Shown piece after piece: positions 54,599-61,915 of a DNA stretch of 64,000 bases. Source of the DNA: an uncultured Dehalococcoidia bacterium (lineage in GTDB: Bacteria; Chloroflexota; Dehalococcoidia; Lucifugimonadales; UBA1123). The DNA lies in contig OY282441.1 in NCBI GenBank assembly GCA_958296105.1, positions 1,089,800-1,153,799 of the forward strand, read 5' to 3'. Made by a program: the position numbers and the translations under genes. Below the pieces are notes generated by a model. The model was given only the letters and a program-made list of their open reading frames with translations, did not search any database and was not told the DNA's origin. The first letter of the stretch is position 1; the number at the start of each line of letters is the position of its first letter.

Positions 54599-55717
54599 TC
54601 ACATAACCCCCATTACCCTGTTCAGGTTGGCGTGGCGCGCAGGGTCGAGATCGCGGCCCGTGAATCCGGGGAAGTCGGGCGCGTAGCGGTGGACTCTGAA
54701 CGTGGAGTTGCTCGGGTTCTCTCCGCTGCGGTCAGGGGTGAAGAACGGGTTGACGAACTCCCAGACGATCTCGCCGCGCCGCGTGACCTCGAAGATGCGG
54801 CCGTGCGCGCCCTCGCAGATGAGCGTGTTGCCGTTCGGCAGCCTGTCCGCTCCGCTGATGTAGGAGCTGTAGAAAGACACAGGCGGGCTGCCCTCGTAGG
54901 TCCACTCTATCTGGCTGGTCTCCGGGTTGACCTCGATCACCCGCGATGCCGCGCGCCCCCTGGAGTGGGTGCCGTTGTCGAATACGAGGATGTTTCCGCT
55001 GTCCAGATGGGTGGCGTGGTGCTGGTGGCTAATCTCTCCGGCGCCCCATTTCCAGGTGACGTCGCCGGTCTCGCGCGAGACGATGGCGATGCTGCTGGTC
55101 TGTCGGAAGCTGAGCAGGAAATCGTTCCCGTTGGTGAGGCTCAGGGAGTTGGAATGTGTCCACTCGCGCCGACCTTCGAGGGGGCAGATCACGTCCTCTT
55201 CGACGCTCAGCTTCTCCCATATCTTCCACTCGCCCGATGTGTGTCCGTCCGTGTCGACTTCTCGGATCGTGTCTCCGAGCATGTGGATCGGGTCTTGCGG
55301 GTCTCGGTATCCGCCCCTGACGCGCGCGGACAGATCGGCGGGCATCGGCTCCCATCTCAGGTAGAGAGTCTCCCCAGTCAGCGCGCGCTCTTGGTCGTGG
55401 TGCATCCAAGGGTCTCTGTGTTCCCACACCTTCACGCCGTCCCAGCTCAGCTCCACGATGGAGCCGCCGGAGCCGCCCAGTCCGCGCGTGCTCTCGAAAT
55501 CGGGAGGAAGTGGAGTCCGCACCAGCAGATTGCCGTTCGGCAGCAGAACCGCGTAGCTGATCCCCTCGTGATAGTCCCACCTGTGGCACACGCGCCCTTC
55601 CATATCCAGCAGCGCCGCGAACTTGCCGGAGTTGGTGAACACCAGAGTGTATCCCTTGCAGGACAGCATCGGCGAGTGGTGGATAAGGCCCACCTTATGA
55701 TGTATGGACCAGCCCAT
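54599..55717 (-). CDS. Arylsulfotransferase (ASST)-like beta-propeller protein
   Basis: 372 residues. Repeated blade motifs with LLPNGNLLVR, LTNGNDFLLSFR, LDSGNILVFDNGTH and RLPNGNTLICEGAHG, where N-G-N turns end each blade, and conserved His in WTHSNSLSL and SHQHHATHL, where ASST enzymes place catalytic and substrate His residues. They move sulfate between phenolic compounds. No signal peptide is evident, unusual for periplasmic AssT. ATG 55717 follows GAGAGAAAG. Confidence 0.83.
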   Translation of the reverse strand: MGWSIHHKVGLIHHSPMLSCKGYTLVFTNSGKFAALLDMEGRVCHRWDYHEGISYAVLLPNGNLLVRTPLPPDFESTRGLGGSGGSIVELSWDGVKVWEHRDPWMHHDQERALTGETLYLRWEPMPADLSARVRGGYRDPQDPIHMLGDTIREVDTDGHTSGEWKIWEKLSVEEDVICPLEGRREWTHSNSLSLTNGNDFLLSFRQTSSIAIVSRETGDVTWKWGAGEISHQHHATHLDSGNILVFDNGTHSRGRAASRVIEVNPETSQIEWTYEGSPPVSFYSSYISGADRLPNGNTLICEGAHGRIFEVTRRGEIVWEFVNPFFTPDRSGENPSNSTFRVHRYAPDFPGFTGRDLDPARHANLNRVMGVM

Positions 55718-55741: not shown

Positions 55742-56683
55742 CTAGAGCGCAAGGTCCAGCGCTGGCTGTCTGGCGGTCTGCGATGCTGGGCAATGGTGAG
55801 ATTGCCGCTCCAGTCTTTCGATGGCTTTTCGGTGAAACTCCGGCTCTATCTCGAAGCCTATGAAGCGGCGGTTCAAGCGCATCGCCGCCACCGCGGTAGT
55901 CCCGCTTCCCATGAACGGATCGAGAACCGTGTGATCTTCACGTGTAGTCAGCTCGATGAGGAACTCCATGAGCTGAAGCGGCTTTTGCGTATCGTGGATA
56001 CGCCGTTCGCCCTTTCGGAATCCAAATTCAAGTAAATTAGTCGGATTGCCGCCGCACGCTTCGATGTTCATAGCCCCTACGCCATGTTCCAAGACATTAT
56101 CCGCTATCGTTCCGCCGATTCTATAAGGTTTTATGAACCATGCGACAGGTTCGTAAATGGGAGCTAGATTCCCGACACGCCATCCTCGCCACGTATGGGC
56201 TGTGTCCATCATGCCGCGCCGTTCGTAAATTACGCTCAGCCGCTGCGCCCTGCGATGCGCCGCCTCCTTCTTCCAAGCGAGGATATCTTTGAGAAGGAAT
56301 CCGCTGTTCTCGAATGCGTTGACGACCCTGTGAATAGTGCGTCTCGCGCCGAATACGAAGGCCGACGCTCCGCTCTTCAGCTTTGGGAAAGCCATTCTAA
56401 CCCAAGACTCGCACCATTCTTGATATTCCCTGCCCGCGTTTCTATCCGCTTGCGACCAGCCGTTGATGGGCTTGCCCCTACGCTCGAACCCCGACTTGCC
56501 AATTTGCGCCGGTGACTGGCCCAGCAATGCCGAGTTGGTATTGCTGTGAAGAACATCCCAGTCATCGAGATTTATGCCATAAGGAATATCCGAAAGAAGA
56601 AGATCCACGCTGCTGTCCGAAAGCGAGGGGATGTGTTCTTTGCAGTCGGCGAGGGCTATCTTGTCGAGGTATGCGTGGTTCAT
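55742..56683 (-). CDS. DNA methyltransferase of a HindIII-like restriction-modification system
   Basis: 313 residues. Catalytic motif IV is DIPY (residues 32-35) near the N-terminus and the AdoMet motif DPFMGSGTTAVAA lies near the C-terminus, the beta-class order; NDMLAW-type motif VIII is DILAWKK. Expected to methylate adenine (or cytosine N4) in the site cut by its partner. ATG 56683 lies 4 nt after the nuclease stop. AT-richer than flanks. Confidence 0.88.
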   Translation of the reverse strand: MNHAYLDKIALADCKEHIPSLSDSSVDLLLSDIPYGINLDDWDVLHSNTNSALLGQSPAQIGKSGFERRGKPINGWSQADRNAGREYQEWCESWVRMAFPKLKSGASAFVFGARRTIHRVVNAFENSGFLLKDILAWKKEAAHRRAQRLSVIYERRGMMDTAHTWRGWRVGNLAPIYEPVAWFIKPYRIGGTIADNVLEHGVGAMNIEACGGNPTNLLEFGFRKGERRIHDTQKPLQLMEFLIELTTREDHTVLDPFMGSGTTAVAAMRLNRRFIGFEIEPEFHRKAIERLERQSHHCPASQTARQPALDLAL

Positions 56684-56687
56684 GGGT

Positions 56688-57638
56688 TCATTCGATCTCC
56701 AACAGACCTCTATCCGCAACGGACTCTACGACTCTCACCTTATTGTCTATTCTGCGCCACCGAATCACTTCTCGAATCGCATCGCTGCGGGATAACTTCA
56801 TAATGCGCTCGCGTTCTCCCGCCAGAAAGCCAAGCGCCTCGTCTCGCCCTATGCGGATCGATTCCACTGAGGCTATCTTCTCTTGTCGCCAGAGGTCGGC
56901 TGTACCATCTGCCGCGTCCAGCATCTTTCGGTTTAACGCCTGCCAATACAAGTTCGCGCTCTTTGATGGATTCATGGCTTCTACGGTTCGAAAGATATCG
57001 AGCAGCAGCTCGATAGCCCTGCGCTGTCCTGCTGTCTCGGCATATCTAACAAGTACCGCAAGGTGCGTGTAGGTATAGACACAGACCGATCTGCTTGCGG
57101 CTTGTTGGTATATCTGGCTTATTCGAGAAGGCAGCTGGTACACGGGACACACAATCATGGCGAAAGGCTTGCCATGTTTCCAGTTGTCCATGGCCAGCAC
57201 TTTGAAATCTTTTTGGTTCTTGGCTGTACGGCTCATGCGAAATGCTTTAGCATCTGCCACGAAGCTGTAATCATCGCATACACACTCGACATCGGCGGAG
57301 TCAGCGCGCTCCCTCAAGACCAAACTGGTAAATCCCATAGAGGCGTAAGCTGCGGAGATTACAACGTCCGTGTACTTGGAATACAACTTCTCCTCACTGC
57401 TGTCGTGATCGTAACTTTCGGGGATTGCGCCGCAAAGTCTGAGATGCGAAAGCAACGGCGAGATGCCGTCTCGTTCTATTTCCTCGGCTATCTCGCGTTC
57501 TACACGATCCGAGCCTATAACGAAGTCGCCGCTCAGCCGCCTGATCTCTTCGATCCAGAATCTTCGCCTGTTTACGTCTTGCTCTGTGACCGTCGTCATA
57601 TCCACGTTCAGCCGTTCCAGTTCTGCGAAACGTGGCAT
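56688..57638 (-). CDS. Type II restriction endonuclease, HindIII family
   Basis: 316 residues from ATG 57638 (303 from ATG 57599; HindIII has 300). The block VADAKAFRMSRTAKNQKDF is almost the same as in HindIII, and PD-(D/E)XK residues line up: Glu83 (EEKLYSK), Asp116 (ADVECV), Asp129 and Lys131 (ADAK). It should cut a HindIII-like site, AAGCTT by analogy. Sits upstream of its methyltransferase and 41 bp after the sulfurtransferase end. The longer open frame upstream is antisense to that gene and is rejected. Confidence 0.9.
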   Translation of the reverse strand: MPRFAELERLNVDMTTVTEQDVNRRRFWIEEIRRLSGDFVIGSDRVEREIAEEIERDGISPLLSHLRLCGAIPESYDHDSSEEKLYSKYTDVVISAAYASMGFTSLVLRERADSADVECVCDDYSFVADAKAFRMSRTAKNQKDFKVLAMDNWKHGKPFAMIVCPVYQLPSRISQIYQQAASRSVCVYTYTHLAVLVRYAETAGQRRAIELLLDIFRTVEAMNPSKSANLYWQALNRKMLDAADGTADLWRQEKIASVESIRIGRDEALGFLAGERERIMKLSRSDAIREVIRWRRIDNKVRVVESVADRGLLEIE

Positions 57639-57679: not shown

Positions 57680-58528
57680 CTAGACCTCCAACGGCGTGTG
57701 TTCGCGGTTTGCCCACTCGCCCATGGAGCCGTCGTAGTTGCGCGTTCTGTCGTAGCCGAGAAGCCGCAGGGTGAACACTCCGTGCGCCGCACGGATTCCA
57801 CCCTGTCAATAGGTGACGACGTTCTTGTCGGGAGTCACCCCGAGGGGTTCGAGCAGCGCCCGAAGCTCTGCGGCAGGCTTGAACGTTCGATGCCTGTCTT
57901 CGGTGATCAGGTTCAGCCATTCCAGATGCACCGCGCCGGGAATGCGACCTGCGCGCGCGTTGCCCCTGTCGCTGGAGCCGTCCCACTCGCCATCCGAGCG
58001 CACGTCCAGGAACACCGTATCGGGGTTTCCGACCTGCCCAAGTCCGTAGTCGAGCGAGCATACCAGCGAGTCGTCGGCGCGCGGGGTGAACGTCACCGAT
58101 CCGACGGCCGGCGGCCTGTCTATGGAGATGGGGCGGCCTTCGTCCACCCACTTCTTCCAGCCGCCGTTCAGCACCCTTACGCTGGTGTGTCCGTAGTAGT
58201 TCAAGACCCACCAGAAGCGTGTGGAGTAGAGGCTGCCGGAGTTGTCGTAGGCGACCACTAGGGTATCGTCTCCAATGCCCATCTCCTCCATCAGACCTTT
58301 CATCACGTCCGGCTCCGCCACCAGCGGATATTCTCGCGGGGCGGACGGGTAATCGGGGTGCTTGATGTAGTGGTGGACGCGAATGCCCACGGCGTTCCTG
58401 ACGTGGGCGCGCAGGTACAGATCGAACTCGTCGCAATCCACGATTCGGATGTTTTCATCGTCCAGACGCTCTGCCAGCCACTCGGTGGATGCCAAGAGCT
58501 CGGGGCGGGCGTAACCTTGTTCTGTCAT
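57680..58528 (-). CDS. Thiosulfate sulfurtransferase (rhodanese), probable selenoprotein with Sec241
   Basis: Two tandem rhodanese domains, 282 residues if TGA 57808-57806 is read as selenocysteine, the usual family length; 240 if it is a stop. The N-terminal domain (LLASTEWLAERLDDENIRIVDC) is the inactive one. The C-terminal domain ends NVVTY, then TGA, then QGGIRAAHGVFTLRLLGYDR and the standard terminal NYDGSMGEWANR, closing with TAG. TGA sits exactly where the catalytic Cys of TYC-x-x-G-x-R-A belongs. A two-part hairpin begins at the next base. ATG 58528 has GGAGG 8 nt upstream. A plain nonsense mutation is the alternative but would not explain the hairpin or the intact tail. Confidence 0.88.
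57767..57805 (-). ncRNA. SECIS-like hairpin directly after the in-frame UGA
   Basis: On the minus strand CAGGGTG (57805-57799) pairs with CACCCTG (57773-57767), and inside it TCCGTGC pairs with GCACGGA around a GGC loop; internal loops are GAA and GTGTT. The apical loop starts 17 nt after UGA and begins with G, meeting the bacterial SECIS model (loop 16-37 nt downstream, early G, long upper stem). Confidence 0.8.
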
Positions 58529-58738: not shown

Positions 58739-61700
58739 ATGACCATTTCCCACAGCGACATAGACCCCAAGATGCTCAGCGCGCTGGAGTGGCGCTGCAT
58801 CGGACCGCCGAGGGGCGGGCGCGTGGTGGCAGTCGCCGGCGACCCTAAAGACATCGGCACGTTCTACTTCGGCGCGTGCGCCGGGGGCGTGTGGAAGACA
58901 TACGACGGCGGCACGTACTGGGAGAACGTCTCGGACGGCTACTTCGAGACGGCATCGGTGGGGGCTATCGCCGTCTCCGACTCCGATCCGTCAGTCGTGT
59001 ACGCGGGCATGGGCGAGGCGTGCATCAGGCTGGACGTGACCCACGGCGACGGCGTATACGGGTCTACGGACGCCGGACGCTCATGGAAGCATCTGGGACT
59101 GGAGGACACGCGCCACATCTCGCGCGTGAGAATCCACCCATCCAACCCGGACATCGTCTACGTGGGCGCGCTCGGACACGCCTTCGGGCCGAACGAGCAG
59201 CGCGGGGTGTTCAGGTCGACCAACGGGGGCGGAGACTGGGAGCGCGTCCTGTTCAAGAGCGAGAACGCAGGCGCGGCGGATCTTGCCATAGACTCGAACA
59301 ATCCGCGCATCCTGTTCGCCTCGATATGGCAGGCGCGGCGCAATTTCTGGAACATGAGCAGCGGGGGGCCGGACAGCGGTCTGTGGCGCAGCATGGACGG
59401 AGGGGACACATGGGAAGACGTGTCCGCCAAGTCGGGGCTGCCCGAAGGGCCGTTCGGTCGCATCGGCGTGTCCATCGCGTCATCGAAGCCGGGCCGAGTC
59501 TATGCCACGATAGAGGCGCGCAAGCCGGGCGTCTTCAGATCGGACGACTACGGAGACACCTGGCAGCTGGTCTCGGACGACCACGATCTACAGGGCCGCC
59601 CCTGGTACTATCAGCACATCTTCGCCGACCCGGTGGACGCCGACACGGTATGGGTTCTCAACTATGGGGCGTGGAAGTCCATAGACGCGGGGGCTACGTG
59701 GGACGAGGTGAACACTCCGCACGGCGACAACCACGATCTGTGGATAGACGCGCGCAACCCCCAGCGCATGATAGAGGGCAACGACGGCGGCGCGTGTGTC
59801 AGCTTCAACGGCGGCGACACCTTTTCGACCATCTACAACCAGCTCACGGCGCAGTTCTACCACGTGACGACCGACAATCAGATCCCCTACCGCGTCTATG
59901 GAACGCAGCAGGACAACAGCGCGATCAGCGTGCCGTCCCGCTCGCACAAGGGCGGGATTCCGTGGAACGACTGCTATACGGTGGGCAGCTCCGAGAGTGG
60001 CTATATCGTGGTGGATCCGAACGACCCCAACGTGGTGATATCCGGGGCAATCGGCTCATCGCCGGGCGGGGGCGGCAACATGCTGCGCTACGACCACGCC
60101 AGCGGGCAGGTGCGAATAATCACCGTCTGGCCCGAGATGAACACCGGGTTCGGGCCGGTGGACGCCAAGTACAGGTTTCAGTGGACGTATCCGATCATGT
60201 TCTCCCCGCACGACTCCAGCGTCCTGTACGCCGCGGGCAACATCGTCTTTCGCTCCAACGATCAGGGAGGGAGCTGGGAGGCGATCAGCCCAGACCTCAC
60301 GCGCAACGATCCGACCAAGCTACAGCCCTCCGGCGGCGATGTGACGGGCGACGCATCCGGAGCCGAGACGTACTGTACGGTGTTCTCGTTCGTGGAGTCG
60401 CCCCACGAGCGGGGCGTGTTCTGGGCGGGGTCGGACGACGGCCTCGTACACATCTCGAAGGACGGCGGCGCAAGCTGGCAAGACGTCACGCCGTCTCAGC
60501 TCGAAGAGTGGACGCGAATCGACATGATAGAGGTCTCGCCCCACGATCCGGCGACGGCGTACATGTGCGCCACGCGCTACAAGCTCGACGACAACCGGCC
60601 GTTCCTGTTCAAGACACCGGACTACGGCCAGACGTGGGCATCTATCACGGGCAACCTGCCGGACGATGACTTCACGCGCTGCATCCGCGAGGACACGGAG
60701 CGCGCGGGGATGCTGTACGCGGGCACCGAGACGGGAGTTTATCTGTCCTTCGACGACGGTCAGTCGTGGCTCTCCATGAGAGCCAACCTGCCCGTCGTCC
60801 CCGTGTACGACATGGTGATCGCGGACGACGATCTGGTGGCTGCCACGCACGGGCGCAGCTTCTGGATACTGGACGACCTGAGCCAGCTGAGGCAGGTATC
60901 GGGGGCGCTCGCCGACGCCGACGCGCATCTCATCGAACCCGCTACGAAGGTGCGCATGGCAGCGCCCTTCAGAGGCCGCGCAGGGAGCAGGAAGAAGAAC
61001 TACCAGCTGGCGCTGGGGGCGGCGGTGGGGTTCGTGGACGTGGAGGGTCCGAGCGGTGAGATCGAGCGCAAGTTCCTAGACGCGGGCGCGAACCCGCCTG
61101 CGGGCGTCCGCGTGTGGTACTGGCTGAAGAGCAAGCCGGTCGACGATGTGACGCTCACGTTCATGGATGACAAGGGCGCGGAGATCGAGACGTTCTCCAG
61201 CGCGGAGAGCGACCGGGACGATGACTCCCGAGCGCGGCGCATACAGGCGGAGGCGGGGATGAACCGCTTCGACTGGAATATGCGCTACCCGGGGCCGAGC
61301 AAGGTTCCCGGAGACAAGACCACCGAGGGCAGCCTGCGAGGCCCGCTCGCGCCTCCGGGGACATATCAGGTCAGGCTGACGGTGGGCGAGCAGTCGCACA
61401 CGCAGAGCTTCGACATGGTGAAGGACCCTCGCGTTTCGGCTACGCAGGAGGATTTCGAGGCGCAGTTCGATCTGCTCATACGGATTCGGGACAAGCTGTC
61501 GGAGACGCACGACAACATCAACCGCCTTCGCAGCGCGCGCGCTCAGGTGGAGGAGTGGGCGAAACGGGCGAAGGGGAGCGCCGCGGAGGAGCCGGTATCG
61601 AGCGCGGCGGAGTCGATAGGGGCCAAGCTAGGCGAAATCGAATCTGCGCTGATCCAGACGGAATACAGGGGGGCGCGCGACCGCCTCCACCTGCCGATAC

Positions 61701-61915
61701 GCTGGAACGCCAAGCTCGCCGGGCTGGTTCCGGTGGTGGCAGCCGCCGATTTCAAGCCGCCACAGCAGGCATACGATGTGTTCGCCGAGTTCTCGGAGAC
61801 TCTGGATAGCCACTTCGCATCCCTGCATCAGGCGCTGAGCCAAGACCTAGACGAGTTCCAGAATCTACTGGCAGAGCTGGAGGTGCCGGCTATCGCGCCG
61901 AGCGCAGGGGTCTAG
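58739..61915 (+). CDS. Large BNR/sortilin-like beta-propeller protein (glycosyl hydrolase-like)
   Basis: 1058 residues. At least eight Asp-box blades (S-x-D-x-G-x-x-W: STDAGRSW, SMDGGDTW, SDDYGDTW, SIDAGATW, SNDQGGSW, SKDGGASW and similar) in two propellers across residues 20-690, then a beta-sandwich region (about 740-890) and a helical C-terminus with coiled-coil character. This is the VPS10/sortilin-like WD40/YVTN/BNR family common in environmental bacteria. No signal peptide is seen, which is odd since most relatives are exported. ATG 58739 follows GGGAGG. Ligand or substrate unknown; catalytic residues not assignable. Confidence 0.85.
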   Translation: MTISHSDIDPKMLSALEWRCIGPPRGGRVVAVAGDPKDIGTFYFGACAGGVWKTYDGGTYWENVSDGYFETASVGAIAVSDSDPSVVYAGMGEACIRLDVTHGDGVYGSTDAGRSWKHLGLEDTRHISRVRIHPSNPDIVYVGALGHAFGPNEQRGVFRSTNGGGDWERVLFKSENAGAADLAIDSNNPRILFASIWQARRNFWNMSSGGPDSGLWRSMDGGDTWEDVSAKSGLPEGPFGRIGVSIASSKPGRVYATIEARKPGVFRSDDYGDTWQLVSDDHDLQGRPWYYQHIFADPVDADTVWVLNYGAWKSIDAGATWDEVNTPHGDNHDLWIDARNPQRMIEGNDGGACVSFNGGDTFSTIYNQLTAQFYHVTTDNQIPYRVYGTQQDNSAISVPSRSHKGGIPWNDCYTVGSSESGYIVVDPNDPNVVISGAIGSSPGGGGNMLRYDHASGQVRIITVWPEMNTGFGPVDAKYRFQWTYPIMFSPHDSSVLYAAGNIVFRSNDQGGSWEAISPDLTRNDPTKLQPSGGDVTGDASGAETYCTVFSFVESPHERGVFWAGSDDGLVHISKDGGASWQDVTPSQLEEWTRIDMIEVSPHDPATAYMCATRYKLDDNRPFLFKTPDYGQTWASITGNLPDDDFTRCIREDTERAGMLYAGTETGVYLSFDDGQSWLSMRANLPVVPVYDMVIADDDLVAATHGRSFWILDDLSQLRQVSGALADADAHLIEPATKVRMAAPFRGRAGSRKKNYQLALGAAVGFVDVEGPSGEIERKFLDAGANPPAGVRVWYWLKSKPVDDVTLTFMDDKGAEIETFSSAESDRDDDSRARRIQAEAGMNRFDWNMRYPGPSKVPGDKTTEGSLRGPLAPPGTYQVRLTVGEQSHTQSFDMVKDPRVSATQEDFEAQFDLLIRIRDKLSETHDNINRLRSARAQVEEWAKRAKGSAAEEPVSSAAESIGAKLGEIESALIQTEYRGARDRLHLPIRWNAKLAGLVPVVAAADFKPPQQAYDVFAEFSETLDSHFASLHQALSQDLDEFQNLLAELEVPAIAPSAGV

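What the first reader, a model, noticed from the sequence alone, without database searches (positions are those of the whole stretch)
57680..58528. Rhodanese with selenocysteine in place of the catalytic cysteine
Seen: the reading frame meets TGA exactly at the catalytic Cys position of the second rhodanese domain (TY-TGA-QGGIRAAHG) and then runs on for 41 further codons of perfect rhodanese C-terminus to TAG. The total, 282 residues, equals the family length. A bipartite hairpin starts at the base after TGA. Known: bacterial Sec insertion needs UGA followed by a SECIS loop 16-37 nt downstream, and Sec usually replaces a redox or nucleophilic Cys. From memory, Sec-containing rhodanese-related proteins have been proposed in metagenome surveys, but a full-length thiosulfate sulfurtransferase of this kind is not something I know to be characterised. 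A standard annotation would truncate it and lose the active site.
Basis: partly seen in the sequence, partly recalled or inferred. Interest (0 to 1): 0.93.

Follow-up and report, generated by a model that had tools for sequence, protein, structure and literature searches.

The report
Rhodanese with selenocysteine at active site
A marine SAR202-type Chloroflexota bacterium almost certainly builds a two-domain sulfur-transfer enzyme (rhodanese) with selenocysteine in place of the catalytic cysteine; the prediction is very well supported by comparison with relatives, but this kind of selenoprotein has been predicted from sea-water DNA since 2005, so it is a solid new member rather than a new discovery.

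Summary
On the minus strand, 58528..57680 reads as a 282-residue two-domain rhodanese interrupted once, by TGA (57808-57806), exactly at the catalytic Cys column; 41 more codons follow to TAG. The genome has tRNA-Sec, selA, selB and a selD that itself carries an in-frame TGA at its catalytic site. In 127 homologues the column is Sec (TGA) in 52 and Cys in 75, nothing else, with at least 4 Sec/Cys switches on the tree. TGA is an ordinary stop elsewhere in the genome, so this is local recoding. A bacterial SECIS hairpin starts right after UGA: published bSECIS constraints are met by 47/49 Sec genes and 2/75 Cys homologues, codon choice is bent towards pairing far beyond the synonymous expectation, and compensatory changes occur. 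Read error, pseudogene and code reassignment are excluded. The most likely function is sulfane-sulfur transfer through an enzyme Se-S intermediate; substrate and activity are untested. The family is not new: COG2897/SseA-type rhodanese selenoproteins were predicted in 2005, 2008 and later reviews. New here: how common it is across a SAR202-like order, a second Sec lineage, the SECIS shaping the catalytic loop, and a conserved arylsulfotransferase-like neighbour.

The parts
57680..58528 (-). Full selenoprotein gene: two-domain rhodanese (COG2897/SseA-like), 282 residues with Sec241, stop TAG 57682-57680
   Evidence: Translation with TGA=U; Pfam Rhodanese 1.2e-35, two stretches; predicted fold mean pLDDT 96, nearest solved structure Thermus rhodanese 1uar
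57806..57808 (-). In-frame TGA decoded as selenocysteine, at the catalytic Cys position
   Evidence: Column is Sec in 52 and Cys in 75 of 127 homologues, nothing else; aligns with the Cys of 1uar, 8k55 and Azotobacter RhdA 1e0c
57767..57805 (-). SECIS region (39 nt, two-part hairpin beginning at the base after UGA)
   Evidence: -24.6 kcal/mol, z -4.97, 0/200 shuffles as stable; lower stem only weakly conserved
57779..57795 (-). SECIS apical hairpin: 7-bp stem UCCGUGC/GCACGGA, GGC loop, loop begins 17 nt after UGA
   Evidence: Meets the published bSECIS constraints (PMC13188914 Fig 2); 47/49 Sec genes against 2/75 Cys homologues meet them; pairing far above the synonymous-codon expectation in Sec genes only
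58142..58489 (-). N-terminal rhodanese domain, without an active-site Cys (structural domain)
   Evidence: PF00581 match G000:C1:1147941-1148288
57707..58033 (-). C-terminal catalytic rhodanese domain, holding the TGA
   Evidence: PF00581 match G000:C1:1147506-1147832 with 1 TGA inside
54599..55717 (-). Arylsulfotransferase-like gene (PF05935/PF14269), conserved downstream neighbour of the Sec rhodanese; linked by position only
   Evidence: Pfam 2.4e-17; same neighbour at about a dozen Sec loci, directly adjacent in same-genus G001 and G002

Best explanation
The gene encodes a selenoprotein. SelB, loaded with Sec-tRNA(UCA), binds the hairpin just 3' of UGA241 and inserts selenocysteine instead of terminating (machinery and SECIS shown by sequence; insertion itself inferred). 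The product is a complete two-domain rhodanese whose catalytic nucleophile is the selenolate of Sec241 at the bottom of the cleft between the domains. Most likely it takes sulfane sulfur from a donor (thiosulfate, a persulfide or polysulfide) to form an enzyme Se-S(-) intermediate and passes it to a thiol, thioredoxin or cyanide-like acceptor, as Cys rhodaneses do through Cys-S-S(-) (inferred from homology). If UGA is read as stop, only an inactive 240-residue protein without the active site results. Sec and Cys forms replaced each other several times within Chloroflexota. Confidence that it is a genuine Sec-encoding gene: about 0.97; that its activity is sulfur transfer: about 0.75. The figure given is for the statement as a whole.
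For: Sec machinery in the same genome: tRNA-Sec 66.2 bits, over the cut-off, anticodon TCA by ARAGORN; selB 2.0e-98; selA 2.3e-157; selD 1.7e-113 with its own in-frame TGA in GUASK. Of 60 related genomes 51 have selB and 54 tRNA-Sec over the cut-off. About half of the 60 relatives carry a homologue with exactly one TGA; named loci are Dehalococcoidia / SAR202 / Chloroflexi MAGs. Catalytic column: 52 Sec, 75 Cys, 0 other; 10 changes on the best tree, at least 4 forced by starred branches. SECIS: 47/49 Sec genes form at least 6 of 7 apical pairs, mean 6.55 against 4.22 expected from synonymous codons (Wilcoxon 3.6e-15), while Cys homologues sit at expectation (3.17 against 2.95); bSECIS constraints met in 47/49 Sec and 2/75 Cys. 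Two-sided pair changes at pairs 11-27, 12-26, 15-23 and 16-22. Tail after TGA under purifying selection. TGA used as the normal stop of neighbouring genes and of selB. Fold pLDDT 96.2; top PDB hits all rhodaneses, 1uar and 1e0c.
Against: No expression, mass-spectrometry or activity data. The active-site loop UQGGIR differs from TST (CRKGVT) and MST loops, so donor and acceptor are unknown, and the score against the NCBIfam MST equivalog is far below its cut-off (106 of 250). Selection for a stable hairpin overlapping conserved codons is judged from models, not probed. Two AT-rich Sec homologues (L059, L147) fall short of the energy limit.
Confidence: 0.75

Rival explanations
1. Genuine selenoprotein, but Sec serves a redox or selenium-handling role (peroxide or electrophile reduction, or selenium delivery to SelD as a perselenide) rather than sulfur transfer.
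For: Almost all selenoproteins of known function serve antioxidant or redox roles (PMC9312934). Cys rhodaneses bind selenium as a perselenide in vitro and have been proposed as selenium carriers (PMC9369223; PMC8538045). The genome makes selenoproteins. The loop is not a classical TST or MST loop.
Against: The whole fold and the cleft match sulfurtransferases. There is no second Cys or Sec at a UxxC position (UQGG), as thiol-disulfide redox proteins usually have. The gene is not linked to sel genes: selA, selB, selD and tRNA-Sec lie elsewhere in the genome, and its recurrent neighbour is arylsulfotransferase-like.
Confidence: 0.2
2. TGA is a real stop: a truncated 240-aa protein, a pseudogene, or a read error for TGC/TGT.
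For: A mechanical ORF caller ends there. Some paralogues in a related draft genome (G005: L136, L151, L152) do carry stray stops.
Against: The same TGA at the same column in 52 homologues from many assemblies; the tail is conserved as protein and is predicted with pLDDT of 93 or more; the SECIS is found almost only in the TGA versions. The stray stops of G005 are not at the catalytic column.
Confidence: 0.01
3. General reassignment of TGA (for example to Trp) in this lineage.
For: In-frame TGAs inside conserved genes (rhodanese, selD).
Against: 17 of 37 long non-overlapping ORFs in the window end in TGA, as do selB, the arylsulfotransferase-like gene and the restriction enzyme gene; the homologues put Cys, not Trp, at the position; tRNA-Sec, selA and selB are present.
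Confidence: 0.01

Closest known systems
Rhodanese-related sulfurtransferase selenoprotein, COG2897 / SseA (Sargasso Sea set, PMC1088965; GOS cd01449 and COG2897 entries, PMC2398784; MQG53192.1 in PMC9312934; 'form 4, UxxG', MCY3690685.1 in PMC13188914)
   Same: Two-domain rhodanese assignment (COG2897/SseA), Sec in a UxxG motif (here UQGG), a SECIS-like hairpin downstream; predicted, function unknown.
   Different: I could not retrieve those accessions, so identity with this clade is unproven. The 2005 set had 3 sequences; here 52 with conserved SECIS, a tree of Sec/Cys switches, and a second Sec lineage.
Azotobacter vinelandii RhdA (1e0c), a Cys thiosulfate sulfurtransferase
   Same: Fold (TM 0.88-0.91), two domains, catalytic residue in the same place; loop CQTHHR shares Q at position 2 and R at position 6 with UQGGIR.
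   Different: Cys instead of Sec; loop residues 3-5 differ; 31% identity.
Thermus thermophilus rhodanese (1uar)
   Same: Best sequence and structure match (E 3e-49; 7.4e-27 and 37% identity).
   Different: Cys in the catalytic position; loop begins CRIAER.
Other rhodanese selenoproteins: forms 1-3 (PF00581, COG0607, NF041203) and the rhodanese/DsbD fusion TsoB (PMC13188914)
   Same: Rhodanese domain with Sec.
   Different: Other families and Sec motifs (form 1 UxxS, form 3 CxU, TsoB UxxxxU; form 2 shares UxxG but is COG0607); this protein scores 32.6 against the NF041203 cut-off of 115.

Membership tests
Bacterial selenoprotein (SelB/SECIS-dependent UGA decoding) | tRNA-Sec, selA, selB and selD in the same genome | tested here: met
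Bacterial selenoprotein (SelB/SECIS-dependent UGA decoding) | bSECIS: 3-9 nt loop, 4-16 bp stem, G in the first two loop positions, 16-37 nt from UGA, MFE <= -7.5 (PMC13188914) | tested here: met
   Loop GGC, 7 bp, 17 nt, -9.9 kcal/mol for the hairpin; 47/49 Sec homologues against 2/75 Cys
Bacterial selenoprotein (SelB/SECIS-dependent UGA decoding) | Conserved Sec/Cys column with conserved flanks on both sides | tested here: met
   52 Sec, 75 Cys, 0 other; tail under purifying selection
Bacterial selenoprotein (SelB/SECIS-dependent UGA decoding) | Selenium present in the expressed protein | not testable with these tools
   Needs 75Se labelling or mass spectrometry
Two-domain rhodanese (COG2897/SseA-like) | Two tandem rhodanese domains, catalytic residue only in the second | tested here: met
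   Pfam, two stretches; fold match over full length to 1uar, 1e0c, 3hzu
Thiosulfate sulfurtransferase (TST) in the narrow sense | CRKGVT-type active-site loop | tested here: not met
   Loop is UQGGIR; motif from PMC9369223. Nearer to RhdA's CQTHHR
Thiosulfate sulfurtransferase (TST) in the narrow sense | Thiosulfate:cyanide activity | not testable with these tools
   No assay
3-mercaptopyruvate sulfurtransferase (NF008557 equivalog) | Score above the curated cut-off | tested here: not met
   106.1 bits against 250
Published COG2897 rhodanese selenoprotein family | Same architecture, Sec in UxxG at the catalytic position, SECIS | tested here: met
   UQGG at the catalytic column with SECIS; published descriptors
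Published COG2897 rhodanese selenoprotein family | Sequence identity or common clade with the published entries (AACY01016424, MQG53192.1, MCY3690685.1) | not testable with these tools
   Accessions not retrievable here

The most novel reading that the evidence does not exclude
Sec has changed the chemistry: the enzyme works through a selenenylsulfide (Se-S) or perselenide intermediate with a donor or acceptor that Cys rhodaneses cannot use well (for example selenium delivery, or organic sulfur linked to the neighbouring arylsulfotransferase-like gene), and the overlapping SECIS dictates part of the catalytic loop (Gly after His; paired A->S and H->N changes), so that an RNA signal steers active-site evolution.
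Probability: 0.2. Interest if true: 0.65.

Novelty: new member of a known kind. Interest (0 to 1): 0.4.

Why it matters
Ordinary annotation would cut this enzyme at residue 240 and lose its active site, so a widespread marine lineage would look as if this enzyme were broken. The locus gives a well-supported, expressible example of a Sec sulfurtransferase, a class predicted for twenty years without biochemical characterisation in the papers I could read. Natural Sec/Cys pairs within one order allow a direct test of what Sec gains in sulfur transfer. It also shows an RNA element constraining a catalytic loop.

Tried and rejected
Read error, pseudogene or true stop: rejected (52 TGA homologues from many assemblies, conserved tail, SECIS). 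General TGA reassignment: rejected (TGA is a normal stop). Lower stem of the hairpin as an essential part: only weakly supported. Rfam on the locus: no SECIS or other RNA family at this place. Function from neighbours: only a recurrent arylsulfotransferase-like gene, of uncertain meaning. Literature search for SAR202 with selenocysteine: two papers, neither on this protein; one, on sponge symbionts, reports SelA/SelB enrichment (PMC5649159).

Full report
OBSERVATION. The gene is on the minus strand, 58528..57680. A mechanical ORF ends at TGA 57808-57806 after 240 residues; reading on gives 282 residues to TAG. The TGA lies in VVTY-U-QGGIRAAHG, and in sequence alignments with solved rhodaneses it falls on their Cys (1uar, 8k55, and Azotobacter RhdA 1e0c). 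Pfam finds two rhodanese stretches. An AlphaFold model from 42 aligned homologues has mean pLDDT 96.2, high also in the part after the TGA, and its nearest solved structures are two-domain rhodaneses.

ORGANISM AND MACHINERY. The window lies in a single-contig genome of 3.18 Mb. Named relatives of the protein are mostly Dehalococcoidia / SAR202 / Chloroflexi MAGs; the nearest named one, Dehalococcoidia SB0664_bin_33, has a contig of the same length as that of same-genus genome G002. The genome holds tRNA-Sec, selB, selA and selD; selD itself has an in-frame TGA at GUASK, a second case of UGA decoding. Of 60 related genomes 51 have selB and 54 tRNA-Sec over the curated cut-offs. TGA is also an ordinary stop here: 17 of 37 long ORFs of the window end in it, as do selB and neighbouring genes. 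Decoding as Sec is therefore local.

COMPARISON. Searching 60 relatives gave about thirty genomes with a full-length or partial homologue holding exactly one TGA, and a scan of GTDB genomes gave further Sec and Cys homologues. Aligned together, the catalytic column is Sec in 52 and Cys in 75 of 127, and nothing else (a few sequences were fetched from two collections, and three degenerate G005 copies with stray stops elsewhere, L136, L151 and L152, were left out). On the tree Sec and Cys change 10 times, at least 4 of them forced by starred branches. One pair of sequences (L134 in G049, L135 in G005) forms a separate, distant Sec lineage, so these genomes have two kinds of Sec rhodanese. The window's own genome also keeps a Cys paralogue (L133). 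After the TGA, codons differ from same-genus relatives mainly at third positions (15 synonymous and 3 non-synonymous differences against L010).

SECIS. The 39 nt after UGA fold at -24.6 kcal/mol (z -4.97). The part under selection is the apical hairpin: seven pairs, nt 11-17 with 21-27, loop GGC or GUC. To separate RNA selection from protein conservation I re-drew synonymous codons for each gene. Sec genes form 6.55 of 7 pairs where 4.22 are expected; Cys homologues form 3.17 where 2.95 are expected. The published bSECIS constraints (PMC13188914) are met by 47 of 49 Sec genes and 2 of 75 Cys genes. Pairs 11-27, 12-26, 15-23 and 16-22 show two-sided changes. In L035, L036 and L061 the pair 16-22 goes from G-C to U-A, which also changes the protein, Ala to Ser and His to Asn; this Ser/Asn combination is absent from the Cys homologues. 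Gly follows the His in 39 of 49 Sec genes but 4 of 75 Cys genes, which fits its codon being the 3' side of the stem; shared ancestry contributes to this count. L068 and L073 have lost this hairpin but have another, 8 nt further on, that meets the constraints. The lower stem is only weakly conserved.

FUNCTION. Shown: a complete rhodanese, Sec codon at the catalytic place, a Sec-decoding genome, a SECIS. Inferred: that SelB inserts Sec, that the selenolate takes up sulfane sulfur to give Se-S(-), and that it hands it to an acceptor. The loop UQGGIR is not the TST loop CRKGVT (PMC9369223), and the MST equivalog cut-off is not reached; Q2 and R6 recall RhdA's CQTHHR. The donor is therefore open. 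A selenium-handling role is a live rival, since Cys rhodaneses can carry selenium as a perselenide in vitro (PMC9369223; PMC8538045). An arylsulfotransferase-like gene (PF05935/PF14269) lies near the Sec rhodanese at about a dozen Sec loci, a hint of organic sulfur metabolism but no more.

NOVELTY. The family is known as a prediction: 'Rhodanese-related sulfurtransferase, COG2897' with three sequences in the Sargasso Sea (PMC1088965), cd01449 and COG2897 entries in GOS (PMC2398784), SseA/MQG53192.1 (PMC9312934) and 'form 4, UxxG, MCY3690685.1' (PMC13188914). UQGG fits UxxG. I could not fetch those accessions, so identity with this clade is likely but unproven. I rate the finding a new member of a known kind. 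What it adds: order-wide occurrence in SAR202-like Chloroflexota, repeated Sec/Cys exchange, a second Sec lineage, and strong evidence that the SECIS shapes the codons, and probably some residues, of the catalytic loop.

Noticed in passing
55742-57638 (-): HindIII-type restriction-modification pair: DNA methylase (PF01555, 1.4e-39) and RE_HindIII endonuclease (PF09518, 1.7e-104), lying between the Sec rhodanese and its arylsulfotransferase-like neighbour, which are adjacent in same-genus genomes. AAGCTT is strongly depleted: 18 sites in this genome against 127-252 in three same-genus genomes, and 0 in the window against 6.3 expected, so the system is probably active with HindIII specificity.
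   Followed up: partly
L048:1501-2418: selD of this genome is itself a selenoprotein gene, TGA at the catalytic position (GUASK).
   Followed up: yes
L134 (G049), L135 (G005): A second, distant lineage of two-domain rhodanese with TGA at the catalytic column and its own SECIS-like hairpin.
   Followed up: partly
L136, L151, L152 (G005): Rhodanese paralogues of one related draft genome with stray TGA/TAG away from the catalytic column: decay or assembly errors.
   Followed up: no
L060: A close Sec homologue on a contig labelled Candidatus Binatia that falls among the Chloroflexota sequences on the tree: misbinning or transfer.
   Followed up: no
58739-61915 (+): Large Sortilin-Vps10/BNR-repeat protein divergent from the Sec rhodanese; homologues also lie near it in G001, G005 and G007.
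   Followed up: no
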